Assembly (NCBI GenBank): GCA_008080735.1
Contig: SHMW01000021.1
Location: 1-54,674 of the forward strand
Length of the DNA: 54,674 nt
Origin: Promethearchaeota archaeon
GTDB taxonomy: Archaea; Asgardarchaeota; Lokiarchaeia; Sigyniarchaeales; SOKP01
Reading direction: 5' to 3'
A program made the translations under genes and the position numbers. Shown one piece after another: positions 14,798 through 26,900 of the stretch. Under the pieces are notes generated by a model. That model had not been told where the DNA came from. It did no database searches and saw only the letters and a list, made by a program, of their open reading frames with translations. The stretch's first letter is position 1; every line of letters begins with the position of its first letter.

Positions 14798-15415
14798 ATG
14801 TCTCAAGAAATAGTTGTGCCCGGAGCTTGCGGCGTTGCGATTAAATGCAAGGATGGAGTGGTCTTAGGAAACGATAGGCGCGCGATATGGGGATATACCG
14901 TAACTAACAAATCTACGAAGAAAGTCTTTAAACTGACCGAATACATCGGAATGGCAGCTTACGGTCTTATCGGGGATTATCAGATGCTCACAAAAATCCT
15001 TCATGCGCAAGCTAACTTATATAAGTTAGATACGCGTGAACGTATATCAACAAAAAGCCTTGCGAAGCTTCTATCAAATTATCTCTTCTCGCGAAAGATG
15101 GCCCCACTCTATACCAACCTCGTAGTTGCGGGTATGGATAAGGATGGCCCGAAGTTATTCACACTCGATGCCATTGGTTCCTTAATACCTGAAGATTACG
15201 GTACAACAGGAACGGGAATGCTTTTATCAATGGGAATTTTAGAAGCTGAATATAACCCAGATTTAACCGTCGCAGAGGGAGAAAAATTGGTTGAAAAGGT
15301 CATCAGATCTGCGATGAAGCGAGATGCGATGTCTGGCAACGGAATCGACATTCTCACAATAACCGAAGACGGCTCCGAAGAAAAGTTTATTGAAATAGAT
15401 GAATTAGGAGAATAA
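14798..15415 (+). CDS. Proteasome beta-type subunit lacking the catalytic threonine
   Basis: 205 residues with the Ntn-hydrolase proteasome fold. It aligns without gaps to the start of known beta subunits: GVVLGNDRRAIWGY matches the GVVxAADRRAT block, giving Asp17 as D26 and Lys33 as K42, and KRDAMSGNGIDI matches the Asp166/Ser169 block. At the position of the catalytic Thr1 there is Ala10 (PGACGV). Only nine residues precede it, so there is no usual autocleaved propeptide. The subunit should therefore be unable to form the threonine nucleophile, as in eukaryotic beta3. It probably joins a mixed beta ring with an active subunit coded elsewhere. It lies directly before the ubiquitin-like locus. 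It could also belong to a proteasome-like relative. Confidence 0.88.
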   Translation: MSQEIVVPGACGVAIKCKDGVVLGNDRRAIWGYTVTNKSTKKVFKLTEYIGMAAYGLIGDYQMLTKILHAQANLYKLDTRERISTKSLAKLLSNYLFSRKMAPLYTNLVVAGMDKDGPKLFTLDAIGSLIPEDYGTTGTGMLLSMGILEAEYNPDLTVAEGEKLVEKVIRSAMKRDAMSGNGIDILTITEDGSEEKFIEIDELGE

Positions 15416-15689
15416 TTTTTATCATTTCTTTTTCTCATACAGTTCTTTATTAGAAGCCTTATAGTATCAGATCCGTAATTTCTTCAGAATGAGAAATAAC
15501 GCATTTCATTGTTATTTTTTTTGCGGGTATTGTTGAAGTTTGGAATACTGCAAATCATAATGCTTCGAAGCTCCAAAAGGATTTAGAAGTAATTATTAAA
15601 CGGTTTGAAGACATTTAGAAATAAATTTGTTCCATAAAGATTTATTGATTTGTTTCATTTTCGTACTTAAACCGCAATTTCAGTGTGAA

Positions 15690-17753
15690 ATGGATTTGAA
15701 GTTAATAAACAATACGTTTGGCGAAAAAAGACAAGTAGCAGGTTTTTCTAAGGACGAGTTAGTGGAAATAAAAAGAAAGATTTCTGATTTTAAATCGGGC
15801 AAATTAACTCAAACAGAAGTTATGGAGTTACTTCAGAGAAAATTTCCAGAAGATCTATTGGAAGAGCATTCCAAATACATTGAGAATATTGAGAATTTTA
15901 TTAATACATATCTCAAGCAAGTCTCAAAGAGTCAAAATTTAGGTGAATTTAACTTTTTTTATCTTAAAAAAAAACTTTTAGAAGAAATAGATCTTATTTC
16001 TAATAACTTATTAAACCTTAAACTAAACTGCCAAAATTCCAAGAGATTCTTGAAAGACCATCATTATCTCAATGATTATATCTCAAGAATTAATCTGGTA
16101 TTTGAAAAAACGAAAGAATTACAGTCATCTTTACAGCCAATAGGTAGGCCTCCGCTTGATTTTGAAGATTTATCCCGTATTTGGTTTGACATGAATAAAC
16201 TGAAAAATTTTAAATTTAAAATGAAAAAGCCGATCGAGGATCAAATAATTTGGGAAGAAATATCAAATTTATACGATTACTTGACTAATAAAGGTGAAAA
16301 GGAAAAAAAGGGGGGAATTTTCAGCAAGAAAGAGTTAGAAATTATATTTTATTTTAAGATTTTGAATAACTATATTTCTAATTTACCTCAAAAAAATGCG
16401 GATTTTTACCTCGATTTGTTATTCCTCCTACATAAGAGTGACCTACTTAGTGTCCTTGAGGAGCAAGAATTTTCAAACATTCTTGAAAGAAAAGAAGCGA
16501 AAGATGAGATAAGAAGATATCTCCGCTCAATAATTAAGGAGGTAATTAGGGCCAACTTAGAGGAGTTCATTCAAGAGGTCTACAGATATGAGGAAAAGAC
16601 AGATTATGAAGGAGGAGATATTCAAAAAACTATTGAAGATCTCCTAGAGAAAAAAATTAAAATATTACTACCAAAATTCATCGATCTCTATTTTAATGGT
16701 TTAGAAAAACACTATCTATCAATCATTGCAAACTCAGAAGACTTCCACCAATTTGAGACTATTATTAATGAATATTCAAACAACATAGATGGAGTTTATG
16801 AAAGCATTGAAAATATCAAAGTTTATACGAATCATTACAAACCGTACTTAGATCCTTATGAAGAAATGCTTGAGTCTTTACACAAAATTTTTTCGAATCT
16901 ATTAGACAACATATACCGTCGAAAAGAAGAATTTATTTATCACCTTGAGGCAATACAACAGGAACGAATGAAGCAAGAGATAAGAACATATACATCAGAA
17001 AAAATCGAGGAACTAAATTCTCTCATTGAAAATTATCGTGATGAGGTTGCCGTATTATTAAAACAAAAGATGCCCCACCTTGAAAGTATTGAGGGAATTA
17101 TCAATACCTATAAGCATAAAATCAATAAAATAAAAGATGATGTTTACAGCAAGCTAAAAGAACAAGGACAAGAAGACTTGGATCAATATCAAATCATTAA
17201 AAATTGGGAAGAGAATTATAAACGCAGAAAAGAGCAAATTGGATTTTTGCTTTCGCAGTATTTAACAAATTTATATAAAGATTTTGAAGGTTTAATTGAA
17301 AAGGAAGAAGCTCTGTTCAACAGAATCAAAGATATATCTCAATATGGAGATGAACAAGATGAAGTACCATTAAATTATGCATTCTCTAGCTTTTTAGCAA
17401 ACAAGCTCACTGAAGATGAAATGCGGGAGCGTATGGTCGAATTAAAAGCCAAAATTAATAGCCTTAACCATCTGAAAGCTTTATACGAAGATGAATTGTC
17501 TCACCTAGAAGATACATTAAAAACAAAAGTGAAGATAAGAGAAGGGATTGCAACTTCTAATGTCCAGTGTGGAGTATGCAGAAAAGAGATCAATTTTGCT
17601 GATGATAAAATCATTAAATGTCCATTTTGTGATGCCGTGTATCATTATTTGTGTGTGGCCTTTTGGCTGTCAAAATATAATAGTTGTCCTTCGTGTCAGA
17701 ACGCATTTTTGGATCCTAATCAAAGTATTTATGAAACTCAACAAGAAGAATAA
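15690..17753 (+). CDS. Coiled-coil protein with C-terminal RING finger, E3 ligase candidate
   Basis: 687 residues from the ATG at 15690; a TTG start 21 codons earlier would add a hydrophobic stretch and is less likely. Residues 1-620 are nearly all helical and highly charged. The C-terminus, about 627-669, has a RING-type cross-brace: CGVC, 13 residues, CPFC, 4 residues, H, 2 residues, C, 10 residues, CPSC, with a Trp before the last pair. RING domains bind a charged E2 and pass the modifier to a substrate. Known archaeal RING E3 candidates are small, so the long helical part, perhaps for substrate recognition or assembly, is unusual. It lies in the same region as the UBL, E1 and E2 genes. 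Ligase activity is inference. Confidence 0.75.
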   Translation: MDLKLINNTFGEKRQVAGFSKDELVEIKRKISDFKSGKLTQTEVMELLQRKFPEDLLEEHSKYIENIENFINTYLKQVSKSQNLGEFNFFYLKKKLLEEIDLISNNLLNLKLNCQNSKRFLKDHHYLNDYISRINLVFEKTKELQSSLQPIGRPPLDFEDLSRIWFDMNKLKNFKFKMKKPIEDQIIWEEISNLYDYLTNKGEKEKKGGIFSKKELEIIFYFKILNNYISNLPQKNADFYLDLLFLLHKSDLLSVLEEQEFSNILERKEAKDEIRRYLRSIIKEVIRANLEEFIQEVYRYEEKTDYEGGDIQKTIEDLLEKKIKILLPKFIDLYFNGLEKHYLSIIANSEDFHQFETIINEYSNNIDGVYESIENIKVYTNHYKPYLDPYEEMLESLHKIFSNLLDNIYRRKEEFIYHLEAIQQERMKQEIRTYTSEKIEELNSLIENYRDEVAVLLKQKMPHLESIEGIINTYKHKINKIKDDVYSKLKEQGQEDLDQYQIIKNWEENYKRRKEQIGFLLSQYLTNLYKDFEGLIEKEEALFNRIKDISQYGDEQDEVPLNYAFSSFLANKLTEDEMRERMVELKAKINSLNHLKALYEDELSHLEDTLKTKVKIREGIATSNVQCGVCRKEINFADDKIIKCPFCDAVYHYLCVAFWLSKYNSCPSCQNAFLDPNQSIYETQQEE

Positions 17754-17765
17754 GAAAAATAAATT

Positions 17766-18017
17766 TTATTTTCTCTGGATTTTTAAAAATTCAGATACTT
17801 CTTTTCCCCTTACCGAGAAATTTGAATCTATATACATTGTAAGAGCATGAACAGGTGTTCCGTTATGGGAATGGCAAGGTGTATATTTTACTGGCCAATG
17901 ATTGATTTTAGTTATATCGATATTATTAACGTCAATGTCTTTTCCATAAATCGGTTTTTTACAGACGGGACAAATTGCCAATAATTTTTTCATAAGTAGA
18001 GCTCGAGAATCAGACAT
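17766..18017 (-). CDS. Small putative zinc-binding protein
   Basis: 83 residues. One CPVC pair near residue 16 is followed by CHSHNG near residue 49 and HALTMYID, giving enough Cys and His for one zinc site. The C-terminal part, HALTMYIDSNFSVRG, is beta-rich. It is convergent with the RING gene, only 12 bases from its stop. No family is recognised. A second possible start is the internal Met at residue 9. Confidence 0.6.
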   Translation of the reverse strand: MSDSRALLMKKLLAICPVCKKPIYGKDIDVNNIDITKINHWPVKYTPCHSHNGTPVHALTMYIDSNFSVRGKEVSEFLKIQRK

Positions 18018-18109
18018 GGTTATTTAAACTCATAAGCTTTTGAAAAAAGAAAACAATCAAAGTTAAAATAAGATGATAATATTTGGATCATACTTGAAAT
18101 ACGAAATAC

Positions 18110-18964
18110 CTAACCAGGTCTCTTTGATTTAATCCTTGTTTTAGGAATATTCTTAAATTTTTCAATTTTCTTTTCTAATTCCTCTTTTTTCTCATTTAAT
18201 CGTTCTCTATCTTTTTCTAATTTCTCTCGCTCTCGTTTTATGGTGCTCTTTTCATCTTCAATTCTCTGTTTTTCACTCTTCATTCTATCAACATCATTAG
18301 AAAGCTTTTGTCTTTTTTCTTGAATATCACTCGCAATTTTGTCCCTTTTTCTTTCTAATCCACCGACATCATTTTTTAGTCTTTCCTTTTTATTTTCCAA
18401 ATCATCTACATCTCTTTGAAGATAATTCTTCTTATTCTCAAGCTTGGAGATATGATCTTTTAATTTTCTGAGATTTTCCTCCTCCTTTCGCTTTTTCTTT
18501 TCTAAATCACGCTTTTCATCTTCAATGTCATCCCGAATGTCTAATAATTCTTTCTTTTTACGTTTTAGATCATCTATCTCGTCGTTTATTTGATTATCTT
18601 TCCTTCGTAAGTTGTCTTTCGCTTTTTTTAATTTTTGTTTTTCATCTTCGATTTTCCTTTTTTGATTTCTAATATCATCTTCAACTTCTTTGATTCTTTC
18701 CTTTGCCTTTTTCTTCTCTTTCAAAAGGTCTCGAATATCTTTTTCGATAGATTTCCTCTTATCTTCAAGGTCCTCTATTGTTGTATTGTATTTCTGTATT
18801 CTCTTAATCACTTTTTCCCATTTTTTTCGTTCTTTTTTCAATTTTTTTCGTTCTTTTTTTAGCTTTTTTAGAAGTTTTTTACTTGGTCTAGCATCTTGAT
18901 CCTCGAGAGGAGTTTTTTCTCGTATGGTATATTTCGAAGGTTTTTTTTCTCGCATACATATCAC
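18110..18964 (-). CDS. Long Lys/Glu-rich coiled-coil protein
   Basis: 284 residues, almost entirely charged heptads: KKLLKKLKKERKKLKKERKKW, then repeated blocks with DDIEDEKR, DVDDLENKKERL and DRMKSEKQRIEDEKS. No hydrophobic segment, no signal and no catalytic motif. It ends in a basic tail, KTRIKSKRPG. It is probably a structural rod. ATG 18964 has GAGTGA just upstream; the Met at residue 4 is equally possible. It lies between the RING gene and the UBL gene on the opposite strand. Low complexity means similarity searches would give little. Confidence 0.7.
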   Translation of the reverse strand: MICMREKKPSKYTIREKTPLEDQDARPSKKLLKKLKKERKKLKKERKKWEKVIKRIQKYNTTIEDLEDKRKSIEKDIRDLLKEKKKAKERIKEVEDDIRNQKRKIEDEKQKLKKAKDNLRRKDNQINDEIDDLKRKKKELLDIRDDIEDEKRDLEKKKRKEEENLRKLKDHISKLENKKNYLQRDVDDLENKKERLKNDVGGLERKRDKIASDIQEKRQKLSNDVDRMKSEKQRIEDEKSTIKREREKLEKDRERLNEKKEELEKKIEKFKNIPKTRIKSKRPG

Positions 18965-19129
18965 TCTAATATAATAAGACTAAACTCAATTAAATGTGTA
19001 TTTTTTAGTATAAAGGATAATGATAATTAATAGGATTGAGATCATTCATTTAAATAGGCAAATTACTATCTATTTATTATTCTAAATATTTAAAATCTAA
19101 TCTACTAAAAATAAAAGAGGTTAATAAAG

Positions 19130-19492
19130 ATGAGTTTTGATGAGTTTGATGATGAATTTGATGAAGAATTAGAAGAACCAACCGGTAAAACTCCATCTTC
19201 AGATATTAAATCCAAGACTCCGGTTATAAAAGGTCCAGGAGGAGGTAAGAAATTATCACTGTTTTTCACTTCTACAATTGGACCAGGAGAGAAGAAACAA
19301 AAATTAATTGTGGATGATGCGAATAATATAGGAGCGATTAAAGAAACAGTTGGAAATATTTTTGGATTAGACCCTACTGATTTTCACCTATCTTCCGGAG
19401 GAGTGACTATGGACGAGGCAAATCCTCTAAGTGAATACAATGTAGAGGATGGAGACGAAGTGCTTTTGATACCAGCGAGCACTGCTGGATAG
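19130..19492 (+). CDS. Ubiquitin-like modifier with C-terminal Ala-Gly
   Basis: 120 residues. Residues 1-40 are an acidic, probably disordered tail (FDDEFDEELEE, then GPGGGKK). Residues 41-117 form a beta-grasp pattern: strand KKLSLFF, strand KQKLIVDD, helix IGAIKETVGNIFGL, then LSSGG, a SEYNVEDGDE turn and the final strand VLLIP. It ends in STAG, so the last two residues are Ala-Gly rather than Gly-Gly, and no extension follows. Single-Gly ends occur in Atg12 and mature UFM1. A ribosome site, AGAGGT, lies upstream. The E1 gene follows after 97 bases on the same strand. It is the likely conjugated protein of this locus; whether it is joined to proteins or lipids, or carries sulfur, cannot be read. 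Confidence 0.85.
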   Translation: MSFDEFDDEFDEELEEPTGKTPSSDIKSKTPVIKGPGGGKKLSLFFTSTIGPGEKKQKLIVDDANNIGAIKETVGNIFGLDPTDFHLSSGGVTMDEANPLSEYNVEDGDEVLLIPASTAG

Positions 19493-19589
19493 GTTAAAAA
19501 GCGTTTATAGATCAAATATTAGTTAAACATCTATTTTTTTAAATTTTTATTATTATTAATATGAATCAAATACCCTTAAGTGAGATGAT

Positions 19590-20816
19590 GTGAAAGAAGA
19601 TTCAAATTTCTTTAGCGAAGAATTATCGGCAAATGAAAGAGATCTTTATGATAGGCAATTCAGATTAGAGGGGTGGTCTCAGCAGATTGTAAAAAATGCT
19701 ACAGTACTAATTGCGGGTATAGGAGGGCTGGGATGTGAAATTGCGAAGAATCTAGCCATGGTTGGAGTTGGACGGTTAGATTTGGTAGATATGGATATTA
19801 TTGAATATTCTAATTTGAATCGCCAAATATTATTTGTTGACGCTGAGATGGGAGAATCAAAGGCGATTGCCGCTGCCAAAAAGCTTAAAGATATAAATCC
19901 ATTTATCGAGATTAATGGATATAATACATCCCTAGAGCGTTTAGACCCAATTTTATATAAACAGGCGGATGTAATTGTAGGGGGCCTTGACTCGATGAAT
20001 GCTCGGTTAAATCTGAATGCTCAAGCAATTCGATTTGATAAGCCTTTCATTGATGGCGGTGTATCTGGATACCATGGGCATATATATACCATTTTTCCCT
20101 ACGAAAATGCCTGCTATGAATGTAATCCATTACCAACCTCAGAAATTGATGATATGGCAGCCTGTACTGTAGTGGGTATTCCGAGAAAAAGGATTCATTG
20201 TGTTTTTAAAGCAAATATGAGTTTTGAGGAAGAACATGAAAGAGGTCCAAATGTAAAAAATATTAAAGAGATTTCTTATATACAAGAGAAAGCTAATGAA
20301 TTAGCTGAGAAACATAATTTCCTTCCTTTATTTAATAAATCAGAAATCATCAAGATATTAGACCAACATGACCCTGGGATTATTACGATTAATGCGATTA
20401 TTTCCTCACTTCAATCCCATGAAGTTATAAAAGTCCTTCATTGGCTCAAGAATAACACAGCATTAGGAGAACCCGTAAAAAACTATGTGGTGTTTAATGC
20501 TATGACGATGAAGTTTTATCGTATTCAAAAACAGAGAAATTCCAATTGTATTCAATGCGGAAATAATGTGAGAAGGGAAGAAATAACAATAAACCCCACT
20601 GATGAATGTGAAAAAATAATAGATAAATTAAAACAGAAAGGATACCGTTTAGATCCCGATATGGAACCCATTTTAACCTTATTAGATTTTGACGATATTA
20701 AAATTGTTGATCTTGATGAAAGTAGTGAAGAAAATAAATTAAGAGATTTCGAACTCATAACTGCTGCTGGATTTCATAAGGGAGAAGTTTACGTAACTCT
20801 CCGAATTAAGGATTAA
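19590..20816 (+). CDS. E1-like activating enzyme with UFD-like domain
   Basis: 408 residues. It adenylates the modifier's C-terminus with ATP and takes it as a thioester. The adenylation domain has ATP motif GIGGLG at 43-48, D-M-D at 67-69 and SNLNRQ at 74-79. Zinc pairs are C175/C178 and C320/C323. The catalytic Cys is C192 in CTVVGIPRKRIHC, like the CTIASMPRLPEHC block of eukaryotic UBA3. Residues about 332-408 look like a ubiquitin-fold domain that recruits E2. This goes beyond the simpler MoeB/ThiF enzymes and points to a true E1. It starts with GTG at 19590; two ATGs just before it are out of frame. E2 follows after 186 bases. Confidence 0.92.
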   Translation: MKEDSNFFSEELSANERDLYDRQFRLEGWSQQIVKNATVLIAGIGGLGCEIAKNLAMVGVGRLDLVDMDIIEYSNLNRQILFVDAEMGESKAIAAAKKLKDINPFIEINGYNTSLERLDPILYKQADVIVGGLDSMNARLNLNAQAIRFDKPFIDGGVSGYHGHIYTIFPYENACYECNPLPTSEIDDMAACTVVGIPRKRIHCVFKANMSFEEEHERGPNVKNIKEISYIQEKANELAEKHNFLPLFNKSEIIKILDQHDPGIITINAIISSLQSHEVIKVLHWLKNNTALGEPVKNYVVFNAMTMKFYRIQKQRNSNCIQCGNNVRREEITINPTDECEKIIDKLKQKGYRLDPDMEPILTLLDFDDIKIVDLDESSEENKLRDFELITAAGFHKGEVYVTLRIKD

Positions 20817-21002
20817 AATTTTCTAAAAAACAATCTAACAATTAGACTTAAAAAAATCTAAGAAGTATATTATCCAAATTAAAAAATACATAAAATTCCG
20901 ATATGTTTTAAAGAATATCTCAATTTATAAAATAAACAATAAATTTTTAAACCCAATAAATCATTACATTTACAAAAATTAATCTAAGAGGGATTAAGAA
21001 AA

Positions 21003-21530
21003 TTGTCATCAAGGAGTAGAAGAGTTAGCCAAGATTTTGCATTGCTAAAAAAGATGAGAAAGAATGGTGATATTATTCAATTAAAACCATGGGACAAGAA
21101 AAAAAAGAGTATTGATCACCTGAAAATCACTATTCCAGGACCTAACGGGACAGCATATGACGGAGGATATTTCCGTTTGGAAGTAAAATTTCCTAATAAT
21201 TATCCAAAAGTTCCTCCATTCGTACGTATGCATACACCTATCTGGCATCCAAATTTTTGGCCGAAGCCCCACGAATATAAAGGTCAGCGGAATATCTGTT
21301 TAGCATTAATCGATCCAAACTATGTTGGTAAGAAGGGCGGATGGAGCCCATCAAAAACTATTAAAACGGTAATTCAAGCAATCAAGGCGATGCTAAACAC
21401 AAGAGGAAAATATGTCAATCCTACCGATGTTTTCAACAAGAAAGCAGCTATTGAAATGATGGAAAAGCCAAAAAAATTTGAAAAAAAAGTTCGATACCTT
21501 GTTAAAAAATATGCAAATGAAAAATGGTAG
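21003..21530 (+). CDS. E2 conjugating enzyme (UBC fold)
   Basis: 175 residues. Takes the activated modifier from E1 on Cys99 and passes it to a target. The UBC features are in order: YFRLEVKFPNNYPKVPPFVR strands, HPN at 82-84, the catalytic Cys in NICLALI (C99), WSPSKTI after it, and the helical C-terminus. The HPN Asn that stabilises the intermediate is kept. The insert WPKPHEYKGQR between HPN and the Cys is longer than usual, perhaps a specificity loop. It starts with TTG at 21003, with GAGGGAT upstream; the next in-frame Met (residue 18) would cut off part of the first helix. The JAMM gene follows 9 bases after the stop, so they are one operon. Confidence 0.92.
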   Translation: MSSRSRRVSQDFALLKKMRKNGDIIQLKPWDKKKKSIDHLKITIPGPNGTAYDGGYFRLEVKFPNNYPKVPPFVRMHTPIWHPNFWPKPHEYKGQRNICLALIDPNYVGKKGGWSPSKTIKTVIQAIKAMLNTRGKYVNPTDVFNKKAAIEMMEKPKKFEKKVRYLVKKYANEKW

Positions 21531-21539
21531 GTAAATGGG

Positions 21540-22334
21540 ATGGAAAATGAAAATAACAGTCAGAAGGAATCTCTTAAGAATAATTTAAAAAGAGAGATTA
21601 AAGAGACGTTAAAATCAGAAATTATAAACGAGATTGTCTCAGAGCTAAAGGCAGAGGAAAGTACCCTAAAAAAAGAGTTAATAGAAATTTTAAATCAGAA
21701 GATCAACTCCGAAAATATTGAGCAATTCGCGCGAGAAGAGAAACAAAAAAAAAGACTTAAATCGGGAAAAGAGCCCGAGTGTTATATTAGTGTGAAAGCC
21801 ATATTGAAGATTAGCAGCCACGCATTAAAATATGCTAATGAAAATATACCTAAAGAAGAATGGGTAGAGGTAATAGGATTATTAGCGGGTAAAATAAACA
21901 AGAAAAATCAAAAACTATATATCGAAGACGCATATCCCATGGGACACGGTAATGCAGTATTTGCAGAAATTAAGGAATACAAAAACTTTGTAAAAGCATT
22001 CAAGGATATTAAGAGAAATGGTCTTTTTATCTGCGGATGGTATCATTCTCATCCCTCATACGGGGCATTTATGAGTGCAGAGGATTTGGGAACTCAAGCA
22101 CGATATCAAAAATTATGGGATAAATCAGTTGCGCTCGTAATCGATCCTTATCAAATCGATGGAAGCTCTTATGGGTTCAAAATATTCCGCTCTAATTTAC
22201 AGACCCAGAAGTGGTATTCTATTCCTTTTGAGATAACTGAGTCTTTGGGAGTTGGTGCCCTGCCAGAATTGATGGAATTCATTAGGCCTATTATTGATGG
22301 CCAAGCATTATTCTTGGAATATGATGAAGAATAG
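21540..22334 (+). CDS. JAMM/MPN+ metalloprotease, Rpn11-like deconjugase
   Basis: 264 residues. It probably removes the modifier from targets by cutting the isopeptide bond, as proteasomal Rpn11 does. The catalytic set is complete: E110 in EEWVEVIGLLAG, then H169 and H171 in GWYHSHPSYG, S179 and D182 in MSAED. The first ~75 residues are a Lys/Glu helix that is absent from simple archaeal JAMM proteins and may bind E2 or the membrane partner. Since the UBL already ends in a free Gly, its role is more likely recycling than maturation. It lies 9 bases after E2 and 26 bases before the membrane RING-like gene. Confidence 0.93.
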   Translation: MENENNSQKESLKNNLKREIKETLKSEIINEIVSELKAEESTLKKELIEILNQKINSENIEQFAREEKQKKRLKSGKEPECYISVKAILKISSHALKYANENIPKEEWVEVIGLLAGKINKKNQKLYIEDAYPMGHGNAVFAEIKEYKNFVKAFKDIKRNGLFICGWYHSHPSYGAFMSAEDLGTQARYQKLWDKSVALVIDPYQIDGSSYGFKIFRSNLQTQKWYSIPFEITESLGVGALPELMEFIRPIIDGQALFLEYDEE

Positions 22335-22360
22335 TCCTAAAACGTATTAAGTCCAGGTGA

Positions 22361-23485
22361 ATGTTTATTAAAAAAAGATATATTATTCCACCTTCTATTA
22401 GTTTGATATTTGCTCTAATACACGGAATATTTATTGAACCTTCTCTAAATATATTTCTCTCATGGACTTTAGTGGGCCTATGGGTTGATTATGTTATTAA
22501 ATTTTTTGAAAAGATTAAGAACTATAGAGAATTTAATTCTCCTCATAATACTTCTTTTTTTGTAATTAGTGTGATTTTCATAGGACTGTTTTATCTTTAT
22601 TCGGGTTATTATACCCGTCTGTTTAATGAACTTTTAATTGATTTGGATCTGGTCTATGTATTGCTAACTCCTTGGATAACTATTTTTTCCTTTCCCTTCT
22701 TACTCTATGGAATATATTCTCTTTTTGCGTGTATTAGGAAGTATGAGGTAGTATATATCTATAAAGAGCGGTCTGTGAATGCGCGCAAGTTTTCTATTGG
22801 TTTCTCGATATTTATCCTCATTCAAAATATGGTCTTCCTAATTCTAATCTTGGAAGAAGAGCCCATTCTAACATTTAAACCAATTTTCCAATATCCCGAT
22901 TTGATTTTCTTAATTATTACAATTTTTTTGGTAATCCTTCCCATATACGGGGTTTTGAAAAAAGAACCGAGTATTTCAGATATAACACCTGAAGCCATTG
23001 CGAGTAGAAGAGATCAAGTGAGAAGCATTGAATCCGCAGCGTCAAGAAGTTCACAATCTAGACCCTCTCGTCCAACTCAGAGACATATCGAACCAAGAAG
23101 CAACACTACTTCACAAAGGACTAAAAGAAAACCACAAACTAAAAAGAAAACAAAAAGTAAACGGAAGCTGTCAAAAGATGAAATTATCAAGAGAATAAGA
23201 AGTATGAAGCCTAAAGCGGGTATACTTAATCTTGAGGATTTTAAATGCATTTTTTGTTTCAATCTGCCACATTATCCCCAAGATAAAGGAAGGGGTATTG
23301 TTCTCTGTCCGAATTGTAAACATCCCGCTCATGCAGATGAATTTAGAGATTGGCAAAGACATTCTAATCTATGTTCTCGTTGTGATGCGGAAATTCCTTA
23401 CTCCTTTCGAACAAATCCCAAAATTATCCATGTAAAGTCCTATGTAAAAGTAATCGAATATTTTAAGAAAAAGGAAAATCTATAA
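22361..23485 (+). CDS. Multi-pass membrane protein with C-terminal RING-like domain
   Basis: 374 residues. Residues 1-210 contain about five hydrophobic spans (for example near 8-30, 65-85, 95-120, 145-165 and 185-205). A Ser/Arg/Lys-rich linker follows at about 225-275. The C-terminal zinc domain (296-341) reads CIFC, 16 residues, CPNC, 4 residues, H, 2 residues, Glu, 10 residues, CSRC. This matches the RING at 15690-17753 in all later spacings and in the Trp four residues after ligand six, but ligand six is Glu instead of Cys. It is the third gene of the E2-JAMM operon, with 26 bases spacing. A membrane-bound E3 is the best guess; it might also be a metal-poor adaptor. Confidence 0.7.
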   Translation: MFIKKRYIIPPSISLIFALIHGIFIEPSLNIFLSWTLVGLWVDYVIKFFEKIKNYREFNSPHNTSFFVISVIFIGLFYLYSGYYTRLFNELLIDLDLVYVLLTPWITIFSFPFLLYGIYSLFACIRKYEVVYIYKERSVNARKFSIGFSIFILIQNMVFLILILEEEPILTFKPIFQYPDLIFLIITIFLVILPIYGVLKKEPSISDITPEAIASRRDQVRSIESAASRSSQSRPSRPTQRHIEPRSNTTSQRTKRKPQTKKKTKSKRKLSKDEIIKRIRSMKPKAGILNLEDFKCIFCFNLPHYPQDKGRGIVLCPNCKHPAHADEFRDWQRHSNLCSRCDAEIPYSFRTNPKIIHVKSYVKVIEYFKKKENL

Positions 23486-25819: not shown

Positions 25820-26191
25820 ATGCCATTTGATCTGACTTTTAACGAGGATAATGATAGGCTTTATTATGATATCAATTGATATATTTCGAATGAGGAAGTA
25901 GAGGATATTATGGTAGCAATGGATGATTTTCTCAGTGAACGTGATACAAGATTTACCGCAGTCATCGACATGAAAGATTTTCGAGTTTCGGAAGACGTTG
26001 AAGAAGCCGCTAAATCAATTCAGCAAGTTATTAAATCGGGAAAATTATTGGCTGATGCATTTAAAGTTTCTCAATCTTCGATTGGTAAAATGCAGTTTGA
26101 ACAAATTGAAAAAGATGCTGAATCAAAAACTTTAAGAAACGTATTCAATAACCAAGATGATGCGGAACAATGGTTAGATTCCATTGCCTAA
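25820..26191 (+). pseudogene. STAS/SpoIIAA-like protein interrupted by an in-frame TGA
   Basis: Reading from ATG 25820 gives MPFDLTFNEDNDRLYYDIN, then TGA at 25877-25879 (codon 20), then an open frame to 26191. Both parts match the intact paralogue at 26529-26900 residue for residue in position, and both reading regions are exactly 372 bases. The TGA stands where the paralogue has Gly (VDGFV), consistent with a GGA-to-TGA change. The conserved core is FTAVIDMKDFRVSEDVEEA. Unless the TGA is read through or a sequencing error, this copy makes only a 19-residue peptide or a shorter protein from the ATG at 25910. The TGA site does not look like a redox site, so selenocysteine is unlikely. Confidence 0.75.
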
Positions 26192-26516: not shown

Positions 26517-26528
26517 GTGAAGAAGAAG

Positions 26529-26900
26529 ATGCCTTTTGACGTGACCTTTAACGAGGATAAGGATAGGCTTTATTATAAGGTCGATGGTTTTGTTTCAAAT
26601 GAAGATGTAGAAGAGATTATGGAAGCTATGGATGAGTTTCTACAAGATCATGAAGGGAAATTTACCGCAGTCATCGACATGAAAGATTTTAAAGTATCAG
26701 AAGATGTTGAAGAAGCAGTAAAATCAATTCAACAAGTAATTAAATCAGGAAAATTACTTGCTGATGCATTTATTGTTGCTCAATCTTCGATTGGAAAAAT
26801 GCAATTCGAACAAATTGAAAAAGACACAGAAGCAAAAACTGAGCGAAGGATCTTTTCCAATCAACCAGATGCCGAAAAATGGCTTGATTCTGTAGCATAA
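26529..26900 (+). CDS. STAS/SpoIIAA-like small protein
   Basis: 123 residues. MPFDVTFNEDKDRLYYKVDGFVSNEDVEEIMEAMDEFL, then KFTAVIDMKDFKVSEDVEEA and a helix KSIQQVIKSG, resembles SpoIIAA-like/STAS proteins in its strand-helix order and in the VIDMKDF strand. The function of these small domains in archaea is unknown; STAS proteins often bind partners or lipids. ATG 26529 is chosen over the GTG at 26517 because the duplicate copy starts at the equivalent Met. It is a tandem duplicate of the interrupted copy 340 bases upstream, and both lie between proA and proB on the other strand. The family call is tentative. Confidence 0.6.
   Translation: MPFDVTFNEDKDRLYYKVDGFVSNEDVEEIMEAMDEFLQDHEGKFTAVIDMKDFKVSEDVEEAVKSIQQVIKSGKLLADAFIVAQSSIGKMQFEQIEKDTEAKTERRIFSNQPDAEKWLDSVA

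What the first reader, a model, noticed from the sequence alone, without database searches (positions are those of the whole stretch)
14798..23485. Ubiquitin-like locus with modifier, E1, E2, JAMM and two RING-type candidates
Seen: beta-grasp UBL, E1 with catalytic Cys192, zinc pairs and a UFD-like tail, E2 with HPN and Cys99, JAMM with complete E/H/H/S/D set, and two RING-type domains, beside a proteasome beta-type gene. Known: complete ubiquitin-type systems occur in some Asgard archaea and in Caldiarchaeum. Inference: this is a full cycle of conjugation and removal with both a soluble and a membrane-bound E3. The unusual parts (687-residue coiled-coil RING, membrane RING, Ala-Gly end, JAMM helix, Thr-less proteasome subunit) make it different from the simple archaeal operon.
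Basis: partly seen in the sequence, partly recalled or inferred. Interest (0 to 1): 0.9.

Follow-up and report, generated by a model that had tools for sequence, protein, structure and literature searches.

The report
Parallel Ala-Gly ubiquitin pathway in Asgard archaea
An Asgard archaeon genome carries a five-gene cluster with a ubiquitin-fold protein ending in Ala-Gly, its own E1, E2 and JAMM genes and a membrane RING-like protein; the cluster recurs in many Asgard genomes and is predicted to tag proteins by a route separate from the Gly-Gly ubiquitin of the same cell, which would mean that parallel ubiquitin-type pathways existed before eukaryotes.

Summary
UBL, E1, E2, JAMM and a membrane protein with a C-terminal RING-like domain lie in order on the + strand (19130-23485); catalytic residues of E1, E2 and JAMM are conserved in 43-45 relatives. 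The UBL model is a ubiquitin fold, nearest Caldiarchaeum ubiquitin. (1) The Ala-Gly end is the rule: 214 of 217 homologues read carry S-x-A-G followed by 0-13 residues, none Gly-Gly. (2) Close orthologues of E1, E2, JAMM and membrane RING occur in the same 29 of 39 relatives; 10 lack the module, one keeping a broken RING remnant. The own genome also encodes a separate Gly-Gly ubiquitin and a second E1/E2; both modifiers coexist in 38 of 195 genomes sampled. (3) The coiled-coil RING and Thr-less proteasome subunit are a separate gene pair, also in genomes without the module. Most likely this is a dedicated, membrane-directed ubiquitin-type pathway parallel to Gly-Gly ubiquitin. Ubiquitin clusters in Lokiarchaeota are published; I found no mention of the Ala-Gly end or the two-pathway split. 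Conjugation is untested.

The parts
19130..19492 (+). UBL modifier, 120 aa: acidic disordered tail (1-40) with a conserved x-K-T-P motif, ubiquitin fold (41-115), end I-P-A-S-T-A-G
   Evidence: PF00240 5.6e-5; model pLDDT about 90 over 41-120; top PDB match Caldiarchaeum ubiquitin 6fno_D, rmsd 1.6, TMt 0.76; A119 and G120 invariant in 35 sequences
19478..19489 (+). codons of the S-T-A-G end (residues 117-120), the predicted mature C-terminus
   Evidence: 214 of 217 homologues read carry S-x-A-G followed by 0-13 residues, none Gly-Gly
19590..20816 (+). E1 (E1a), 408 aa, adenylation plus catalytic Cys192; zinc pairs C175/C178 and C320/C323
   Evidence: ThiF 5.5e-58; profile best PDB match UBA3 (9.2e-53, positions 33-356); Cys192 45/45
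21003..21530 (+). E2 (E2a), 175 aa, HPN at 82-84, Cys99, conserved C-terminal Trp175
   Evidence: UQ_con 3.9e-27; HPN, C99, W175 43/43
21540..22334 (+). JAMM protease, 264 aa, with N-terminal segment of about 80 aa, helical by appearance (not modelled)
   Evidence: JAB 7.3e-14; best PDB match Caldiarchaeum Rpn11 homologue 8e-15; E110, H169, H171, S179, D182 44/44
22361..23485 (+). membrane RING-like protein, 374 aa, helical membrane part (five hydrophobic stretches) plus C-terminal RING-like domain
   Evidence: model mean pLDDT 83; hydropathy count; present in the same 29 of 39 genomes as E1a/E2a/JAMM, plus a stop-broken remnant in one further genome
23219..23479 (+). RING-like domain of the membrane protein (residues 287-373); C296 C299 C316 C319 H324 E327 W331 C338 C341
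18110..18964 (-). divergent coiled-coil protein (284 aa) upstream of UBL; neighbour of unknown role
   Evidence: a similar coiled-coil ORF is hit in 23 of 28 relatives' loci; low-complexity similarity, so orthology is not shown
14798..15415 (+). proteasome beta-type subunit without Thr1; neighbour, not a member of the module
   Evidence: Proteasome 3.4e-50; orthologue in 34 of 39 relatives (one partial) including genomes without the module
15690..17753 (+). 687-aa helical protein with C-terminal RING finger; pairs with the Thr-less beta subunit, not with the module
   Evidence: RING_2 3.2e-5, under cut-off; RNF126 2.3e-6; beside the beta subunit in 21 family genomes, 4 without the module

Best explanation
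Window 19130-23485 holds five co-directed genes, conserved in order in many Asgard genomes, that encode a ubiquitin-fold modifier ending in Ala-Gly with its own E1, E2, JAMM protease and membrane-anchored RING-like protein, and they likely form a protein-tagging pathway that would work at the membrane and in parallel with the separate Gly-Gly ubiquitin of the same genome. Proposed steps. (1) The JAMM would trim any residues behind S-T-A-G (none in this genome, up to 13 in relatives) and remove the modifier from targets. (2) The single-chain E1, probably a homodimer because it keeps an MoeB-like N-terminal Y-x-R-Q motif that the eukaryotic catalytic half takes from a partner chain (motif and its role recalled), would adenylate the Gly end and take the modifier onto Cys192. 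(3) E2 would receive it on Cys99. (4) The membrane RING-like protein would recruit E2 and direct the modifier to membrane or membrane-near targets. (5) The Ala before the last Gly, with a dedicated E1/E2/JAMM, would keep the two pathways apart. The conserved Lys of the disordered x-K-T-P tail is a candidate site for chains, as Lys11 is in SUMO-2/3 (recalled). Shown: genes, UBL fold as a confident model, catalytic residues, end motif, gene order, co-occurrence. Inferred: every catalytic step, membrane targeting, separation of the pathways.
For: Ubiquitin fold. Catalytic residues of E1, E2 and JAMM conserved without exception in 45, 43 and 44 relatives. The five genes are neighbours in the same order in 25 of 28 order relatives' loci and in 12 of 20 loci that I chose from more distant genomes; three more have two blocks, five are partial. 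Close orthologues of E1a, E2a, JAMM and membrane RING are found in the identical set of 29 of 39 genomes; the other 10 have none intact. The end is S-x-A-G in 214 of 217 homologues read. A separate 83-aa ubiquitin ending A-T-Q-A-G-G sits at G000:C37 and a second E1/E2 at G000:C118; E1a and E1b are separated at 100/100 support. Gly-Gly ubiquitin is found without the Ala-Gly gene in 10 of 57 class genomes, six of them 90-100% complete.
Against: No biochemistry. The membrane RING-like domain has no sequence match to solved RINGs, weak Foldseek scores, middling Z, Glu where C6 of a RING would stand, Ser instead of Pro before the last Cys, and no clear linchpin Arg (RING positions recalled). In 8 class genomes the Ala-Gly gene is found without the Gly-Gly gene, and 37 genomes outside the class have it without that ubiquitin type, so in those lineages it may be the only ubiquitin-type pathway; cross-use with the second E1/E2 is not excluded. 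Two sequences have a Gly behind the Ala-Gly (L274 ...S-T-A-G-G-F; fusion L061 ...S-T-A-G-G...), so a Gly-Gly end is possible there. E1 tail not shown to be a UFD. The gaps after UBL and after E1 are 97 and 186 bases, so one transcript is assumed.
Confidence: 0.72

Rival explanations
1. One ubiquitin system with two interchangeable modifiers: both E1/E2 sets charge both the Ala-Gly and the Gly-Gly protein, and the JAMM cuts both.
For: No ubiquitin gene was seen beside the second E1/E2, so its partner is unproven; 8 class genomes show the Ala-Gly gene but no Gly-Gly gene, and all five of those that one search covers still have the second E1.
Against: Close orthologues of E1a, E2a, JAMM and membrane RING come and go together (29 of 39, none intact in the other 10), and the seven of those 10 that were scanned for the Ala-Gly gene lack it too, while six of the seven keep Gly-Gly ubiquitin. 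The end is A-G in one family and G-G in the other.
Confidence: 0.15
2. The Ala-Gly protein is a sulphur carrier like MoaD, ThiS or Urm1, activated as thiocarboxylate rather than conjugated.
For: The E1 adenylation domain is related to MoeB/ThiF; two listed homologues are named 'molybdopterin converting factor small subunit' by a source.
Against: The E1 has a catalytic-Cys region that aligns with UBA3 through position 356, and the cluster has an E2 with HPN and Cys99 in 43 of 43; the genome has a separate MoeB-like gene on C37.
Confidence: 0.06
3. This is simply the ubiquitin locus of Lokiarchaeota already described, with no separate pathway: the Ala-Gly protein is the organism's ubiquitin and the Gly-Gly protein is a non-conjugated ubiquitin-like protein.
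For: A clustered ubiquitin region in Lokiarchaeota is published (PMC9192718, section 6 read). Outside the class the Ala-Gly module occurs without this Gly-Gly type.
Against: The Gly-Gly protein has an invariant A-T-Q-A-G-G end with 0-1 extra residues in 13 aligned genomes and stays, with E1b and E2b, in genomes without the module such as G009, G017, G022 and G030, which fits a working modifier.
Confidence: 0.2

Closest known systems
Caldiarchaeum subterraneum ubiquitin operon (ubiquitin, E1, E2, small RING; Rpn11/JAMM beside it), PMC5654768 (passages) and PMC6043591 (passages and section 6)
   Same: Same component kinds; E1 with catalytic Cys; its JAMM is the nearest in PDB; its ubiquitin is the top structural match; some relatives carry a C-terminal extension, as its pro-ubiquitin does (nine residues in that paper).
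   Different: Its modifier ends in Gly-Gly after cleavage and its E3 is a small RING protein; here Ala-Gly, a membrane RING-like protein, an acidic N-tail, and a second ubiquitin with E1/E2 in the same genome.
Asgard Ub-ESCRT gene clusters (PMC9192718, passages and section 6; PMC10936438, passages)
   Same: Ubiquitin and ubiquitin-modifying genes clustered in Lokiarchaeota; CR_4, a genome used there, carries the Ala-Gly gene (L150) on a contig as long as the one whose stretch L054 holds the module.
   Different: In the parts that I read neither paper mentions an Ala-Gly end, two modifiers in one genome, or the membrane RING protein.
Eukaryotic parallel UBL pathways (NEDD8, SUMO, UFM1, ATG12; recalled)
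   Same: Own modifier, E1, E2 and protease; E1a profile matches UBA3 best; UFM1, ATG8 and ATG12 also lack Gly-Gly ends (recalled).
   Different: Single-chain E1, JAMM as protease, archaeal gene cluster; none of those modifiers ends in Ala-Gly as far as I recall.
HRD1/gp78-type membrane RING ligases (recalled)
   Same: Multi-spanning membrane part plus a RING-type domain at the C-terminal side.
   Different: No detectable sequence relation; one RING ligand position is Glu; likeness found only by motif and fold comparison.

Membership tests
Ubiquitin-type (E1-E2-E3) conjugation system | Modifier with ubiquitin beta-grasp fold | tested here: met
   (model, not a solved structure)
Ubiquitin-type (E1-E2-E3) conjugation system | Modifier ending in a free Gly after an exposed tail | tested here: met
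   G120 is the last residue in the window; S-x-A-G end in 214 of 217
Ubiquitin-type (E1-E2-E3) conjugation system | E1 with adenylation domain and catalytic Cys | tested here: met
Ubiquitin-type (E1-E2-E3) conjugation system | E1 C-terminal ubiquitin-fold domain that binds E2 | tested here: inconclusive
Ubiquitin-type (E1-E2-E3) conjugation system | E2 with UBC fold, HPN and catalytic Cys | tested here: met
   by sequence:
Ubiquitin-type (E1-E2-E3) conjugation system | Covalent transfer to substrate lysines | not testable with these tools
   needs purified proteins or proteomics
Canonical ubiquitin (Gly-Gly) | C-terminal Gly75-Gly76 | tested here: not met
   Ala-Gly in the window; no Gly-Gly among 217 homologues read; one distant orthologue (L274) has a Gly behind Ala-Gly
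RING finger E3 (membrane protein) | Cross-brace of eight Cys/His ligands | tested here: inconclusive
RING finger E3 (membrane protein) | E2-contact positions: hydrophobic residue at C1+2 and Trp between the C6 and C7 positions | tested here: met
   F298 and W331 invariant in 41 sequences; the meaning of the positions is recalled and agrees with I30/W58 of the Caldiarchaeum RING; contact itself not modelled
RING finger E3 (687-aa protein) | RING sequence relation to known E3s | tested here: met
   RNF126 2.3e-6, EL5 7.7e-6
JAMM/MPN+ isopeptidase | E ... H-x-H-x7-S-x2-D | tested here: met
   E110, H169, H171, S179, D182 in 44 of 44
Catalytic proteasome beta subunit | N-terminal Thr1 after processing | tested here: not met
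   P-G-A-C in the window; none of 26 readable orthologue N-termini has Thr after P-G; two other beta genes of this genome keep G-T-T-T

The most novel reading that the evidence does not exclude
Asgard archaea run two separate ubiquitin-type pathways in one cell: soluble Gly-Gly ubiquitin with its own E1/E2, and an Ala-Gly modifier with a dedicated E1, E2, JAMM and membrane RING that marks membrane proteins and is built into Cdc48N-VWA and HerA-ATPase fusion proteins. The split into insulated parallel pathways, thought typical of eukaryotes, would then be archaeal, with the penultimate Ala as the insulator.
Probability: 0.5. Interest if true: 0.88.

Novelty: new variant of a known kind. Interest (0 to 1): 0.7.

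Why it matters
Eukaryotes keep ubiquitin, SUMO, NEDD8 and others apart with matched E1/E2 sets, and it is open when such parallel pathways arose. A module that is dispensable as a block beside a Gly-Gly ubiquitin in the closest archaeal relatives of eukaryotes makes that question testable with a handful of small proteins. It also offers a candidate membrane-anchored ubiquitin-type ligase in an archaeon and a link to membrane protein sorting. In this genome the last Lys or Arg of the modifier is residue 71, so trypsin would leave a 49-residue remnant on targets and standard Gly-Gly-remnant proteomics would miss its conjugates, which may be why such a system could pass unseen (inference).

Tried and rejected
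Rejected: the proteasome subunit and the 687-aa RING as parts of the module. The beta subunit has an orthologue in 34 of 39 relatives, one partial; the RING protein matches in 37 of 39, in some only over the finger; both occur in genomes without the module. In the family they stand on one contig within 1.7 kb in all 21 genomes that have the beta orthologue (one divergent, one with the RING gene split over two contigs); in six of the 21 the module was seen next to them. Rejected as evidence: the 83-aa ORF at 17766-18017 has no family match over a cut-off.

One search kept 80 of 125 relatives. Of 799 homologues the best 120 were listed and read, 98 listed, 97 new. The three of 217 without the motif: P0310 and P0327 end early or differently (both marked partial), P0321 reads S-T-A-D. 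Some loci are the same contigs; identical proteins were counted once. In one search, 30 loci were given, 27 lines printed, one of them not an N-terminus. The 20 distant loci were my choice among the matches.
Full report
What is there. The window is contig C21 of a 4.1-Mb, 140-contig genome. Its nearest named relatives are Lokiarchaeota, so it is an Asgard archaeon of that class. From 19130 to 23485 five genes run on the + strand: UBL (120 aa), E1 (408), E2 (175), JAMM (264) and a membrane protein (374). Upstream, on the other strand, is a coiled-coil protein; beyond it lie a 687-aa protein with a RING finger and a proteasome beta-type gene.

The parts. Pfam gives ThiF 5.5e-58, UQ_con 3.9e-27 and JAB 7.3e-14; ubiquitin comes at 5.6e-5, just below its cut-off, but all 35 aligned homologues match it at E <= 0.01. 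The UBL model has a disordered acidic tail (1-40) and a confident bb-a-bb fold; 626 PDB chains match at E <= 0.001, the best being Caldiarchaeum ubiquitin, with ISG15, NEDD8 and ubiquitin behind. In relatives' loci, E1 Cys192 is conserved in 45 of 45, E2 HPN and Cys99 in 43 of 43, and the five JAMM residues in 44 of 44. The E1 profile matches the NEDD8 E1 catalytic subunit best (9.2e-53, positions 33-356). The UFD-like E1 tail remains open.

The Ala-Gly end. Of the 120 best homologues and the 97 new ones, 214 of 217 carry S-x-A-G (x is T, I, V or Q). The other three are two partial proteins and one that reads S-T-A-D. None of the 217 has Gly-Gly. Behind A-G stand 0 to 13 residues, none in 118 of 214, which marks A-G as a boundary and fits trimming by the JAMM, as shown for the nine-residue extension of Caldiarchaeum ubiquitin (PMC5654768, passages). 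In fetched loci, 115 of 117 distinct standalone UBL ORFs end this way; the other two look cut or unrelated at the end. Outside these sets I saw two cases with a Gly behind A-G: the distant orthologue L274 and the fusion L061. The N-tail keeps an x-K-x-P motif in 113 of 118 and 85 of 91 rows that the script could read.

A module that moves as a block. Among 39 order-level relatives (own genome included), close orthologues of E1, E2, JAMM and membrane RING occur in the identical 29 genomes. The other 10 have none, except a 69-residue, stop-broken RING remnant in the single-contig genome G030. The Ala-Gly gene is in the stretch read for 28 of the 29; in the 29th a ubiquitin-family match lies beside the E1 fragment on another contig. 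Seven of the 10 were scanned with the UBL alignment and lack it. The five genes are neighbours in the same order in 25 of 28 relatives' loci; the others are one with a 5-kb insertion and two cut by contig ends. In one of the 25 (L035) the E2 is broken by a stop. In 20 loci chosen from more distant genomes, 12 keep the five in order, 3 have them in two blocks and 5 are partial.

A second pathway in the same cell. Pfam ubiquitin finds another gene in this genome, at C37, a better match than the window's (5.6e-9 versus 1.5e-4). It is an 83-aa solo ubiquitin ending A-T-Q-A-G-G, with that end invariant in 13 aligned genomes. A second E1 (533 aa) and E2 lie on C118. In a tree of 30 rows the two E1 kinds separate at 100/100, although the root and the long MoeB-like row leave the deeper order unsure. 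In 195 genomes drawn from the phylum, 83 have the Ala-Gly type, 48 this Gly-Gly type and 38 both; within the 57 genomes of the class, 8 have only Ala-Gly, 10 only Gly-Gly and 1 neither; 37 genomes outside the class have Ala-Gly without this Gly-Gly type. Thus the module can be lacking while Gly-Gly ubiquitin stays, which is what two pathways would do; but some of these genomes are incomplete, and outside the class the Ala-Gly modifier may be the only one (a more distant Gly-Gly ubiquitin would have been missed at the threshold used).

What does not belong. The Thr-less beta subunit has an orthologue in 34 of 39 relatives, one partial, and none of 26 readable N-termini has Thr1; this genome has two more beta genes with G-T-T-T and two alpha genes. 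The 687-aa RING protein stands within 1.7 kb of it on the same contig in all 21 family genomes that have the beta orthologue, of which G009, G017, G022 and G024 lack the module; in more distant families the two are not adjacent. In six of the 21 the module was seen beside the pair. Its RING is related by sequence to known ligases. It is more likely an E3 or adaptor linked to the proteasome and, where the module is missing, could serve the Gly-Gly pathway (inference).

Fusions. The Ala-Gly domain is also found at the C-terminus of larger proteins near the module: Cdc48N-VWA-UBL (L058, L061) and HerA-ATPase-UBL (L263, L279), with ends S-T-A-G or, in L263, S-R-A-G. Another 37 distinct proteins have one or two hydrophobic stretches at the N-terminus (32 with two) and a UBL without Ala-Gly. 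The last cannot be conjugated through that end and may be receptors (inference).

Mechanism and judgement. I take it as a complete, reversible ubiquitin-type pathway with a membrane-bound E3-like protein, kept apart from Gly-Gly ubiquitin by matched enzymes and by the Ala before the last Gly. Genes, residues, order, co-occurrence and a confident UBL model are shown; all chemistry is inferred. The kind of system is known from Caldiarchaeum (PMC5654768, PMC6043591) and clustered ubiquitin genes in Lokiarchaeota are in print (PMC9192718). The fixed Ala-Gly end, the block-wise presence beside a second ubiquitin, and the membrane RING-like partner were not found in my searches, which cover open-licence papers only. 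I file it as a new variant of a known kind. On checking, the count of the end motif was mended from 215 to 214 of 217 and the gene gaps to 97 and 186 bases; neither changes the odds.

Noticed in passing
L058:4427-6121, L061:2213-3961: Proteins with a Cdc48 N-domain, a VWA domain and a C-terminal UBL with S-T-A-G near the end, encoded near the module.
   Followed up: partly
L279:1910-3715, L263:10075-11814: HerA-like ATPases with a C-terminal UBL ending S-T-A-G or S-R-A-G, upstream of the module.
   Followed up: partly
for example L047:5746-6537, L043:5747-6532: 37 distinct proteins with one or two N-terminal hydrophobic stretches and a C-terminal UBL lacking Ala-Gly, in the loci read often next to a second copy of the modifier gene.
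   Followed up: partly
14798-17753: Pair of a Thr-less proteasome beta subunit and a 687-aa helical RING protein, adjacent in all 21 family genomes with the beta orthologue; a possible proteasome-linked E3.
   Followed up: partly
L052 (G000:C118): Second E1 (533 aa, with an insert not seen in the module's E1) and E2, no ubiquitin gene seen beside them; a HAD-type phosphatase-like gene lies nearby here and in relatives.
   Followed up: partly
G030:C1:594114-594320: Stop-broken match to the membrane RING domain in a single-contig relative that lacks the module, a sign of loss.
   Followed up: no
21003-21530: The E2 ends in a Trp conserved in 43 of 43 relatives; possible contact with E1, RING or modifier.
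   Followed up: no
L196:9346-9588: A third ubiquitin type (end T-R-T-E-G-G) in genome G035, with E1- and E2-like matches close by on the same contig.
   Followed up: no
25910-26191 and 26517-26900: Two neighbouring ORFs encode very similar 93-aa and 127-aa proteins, an apparent tandem duplication.
   Followed up: no
L035:7243-7796: In genome G007 the module's E2 is interrupted by a stop codon (or a sequencing error), and its membrane RING match falls into several pieces.
   Followed up: no
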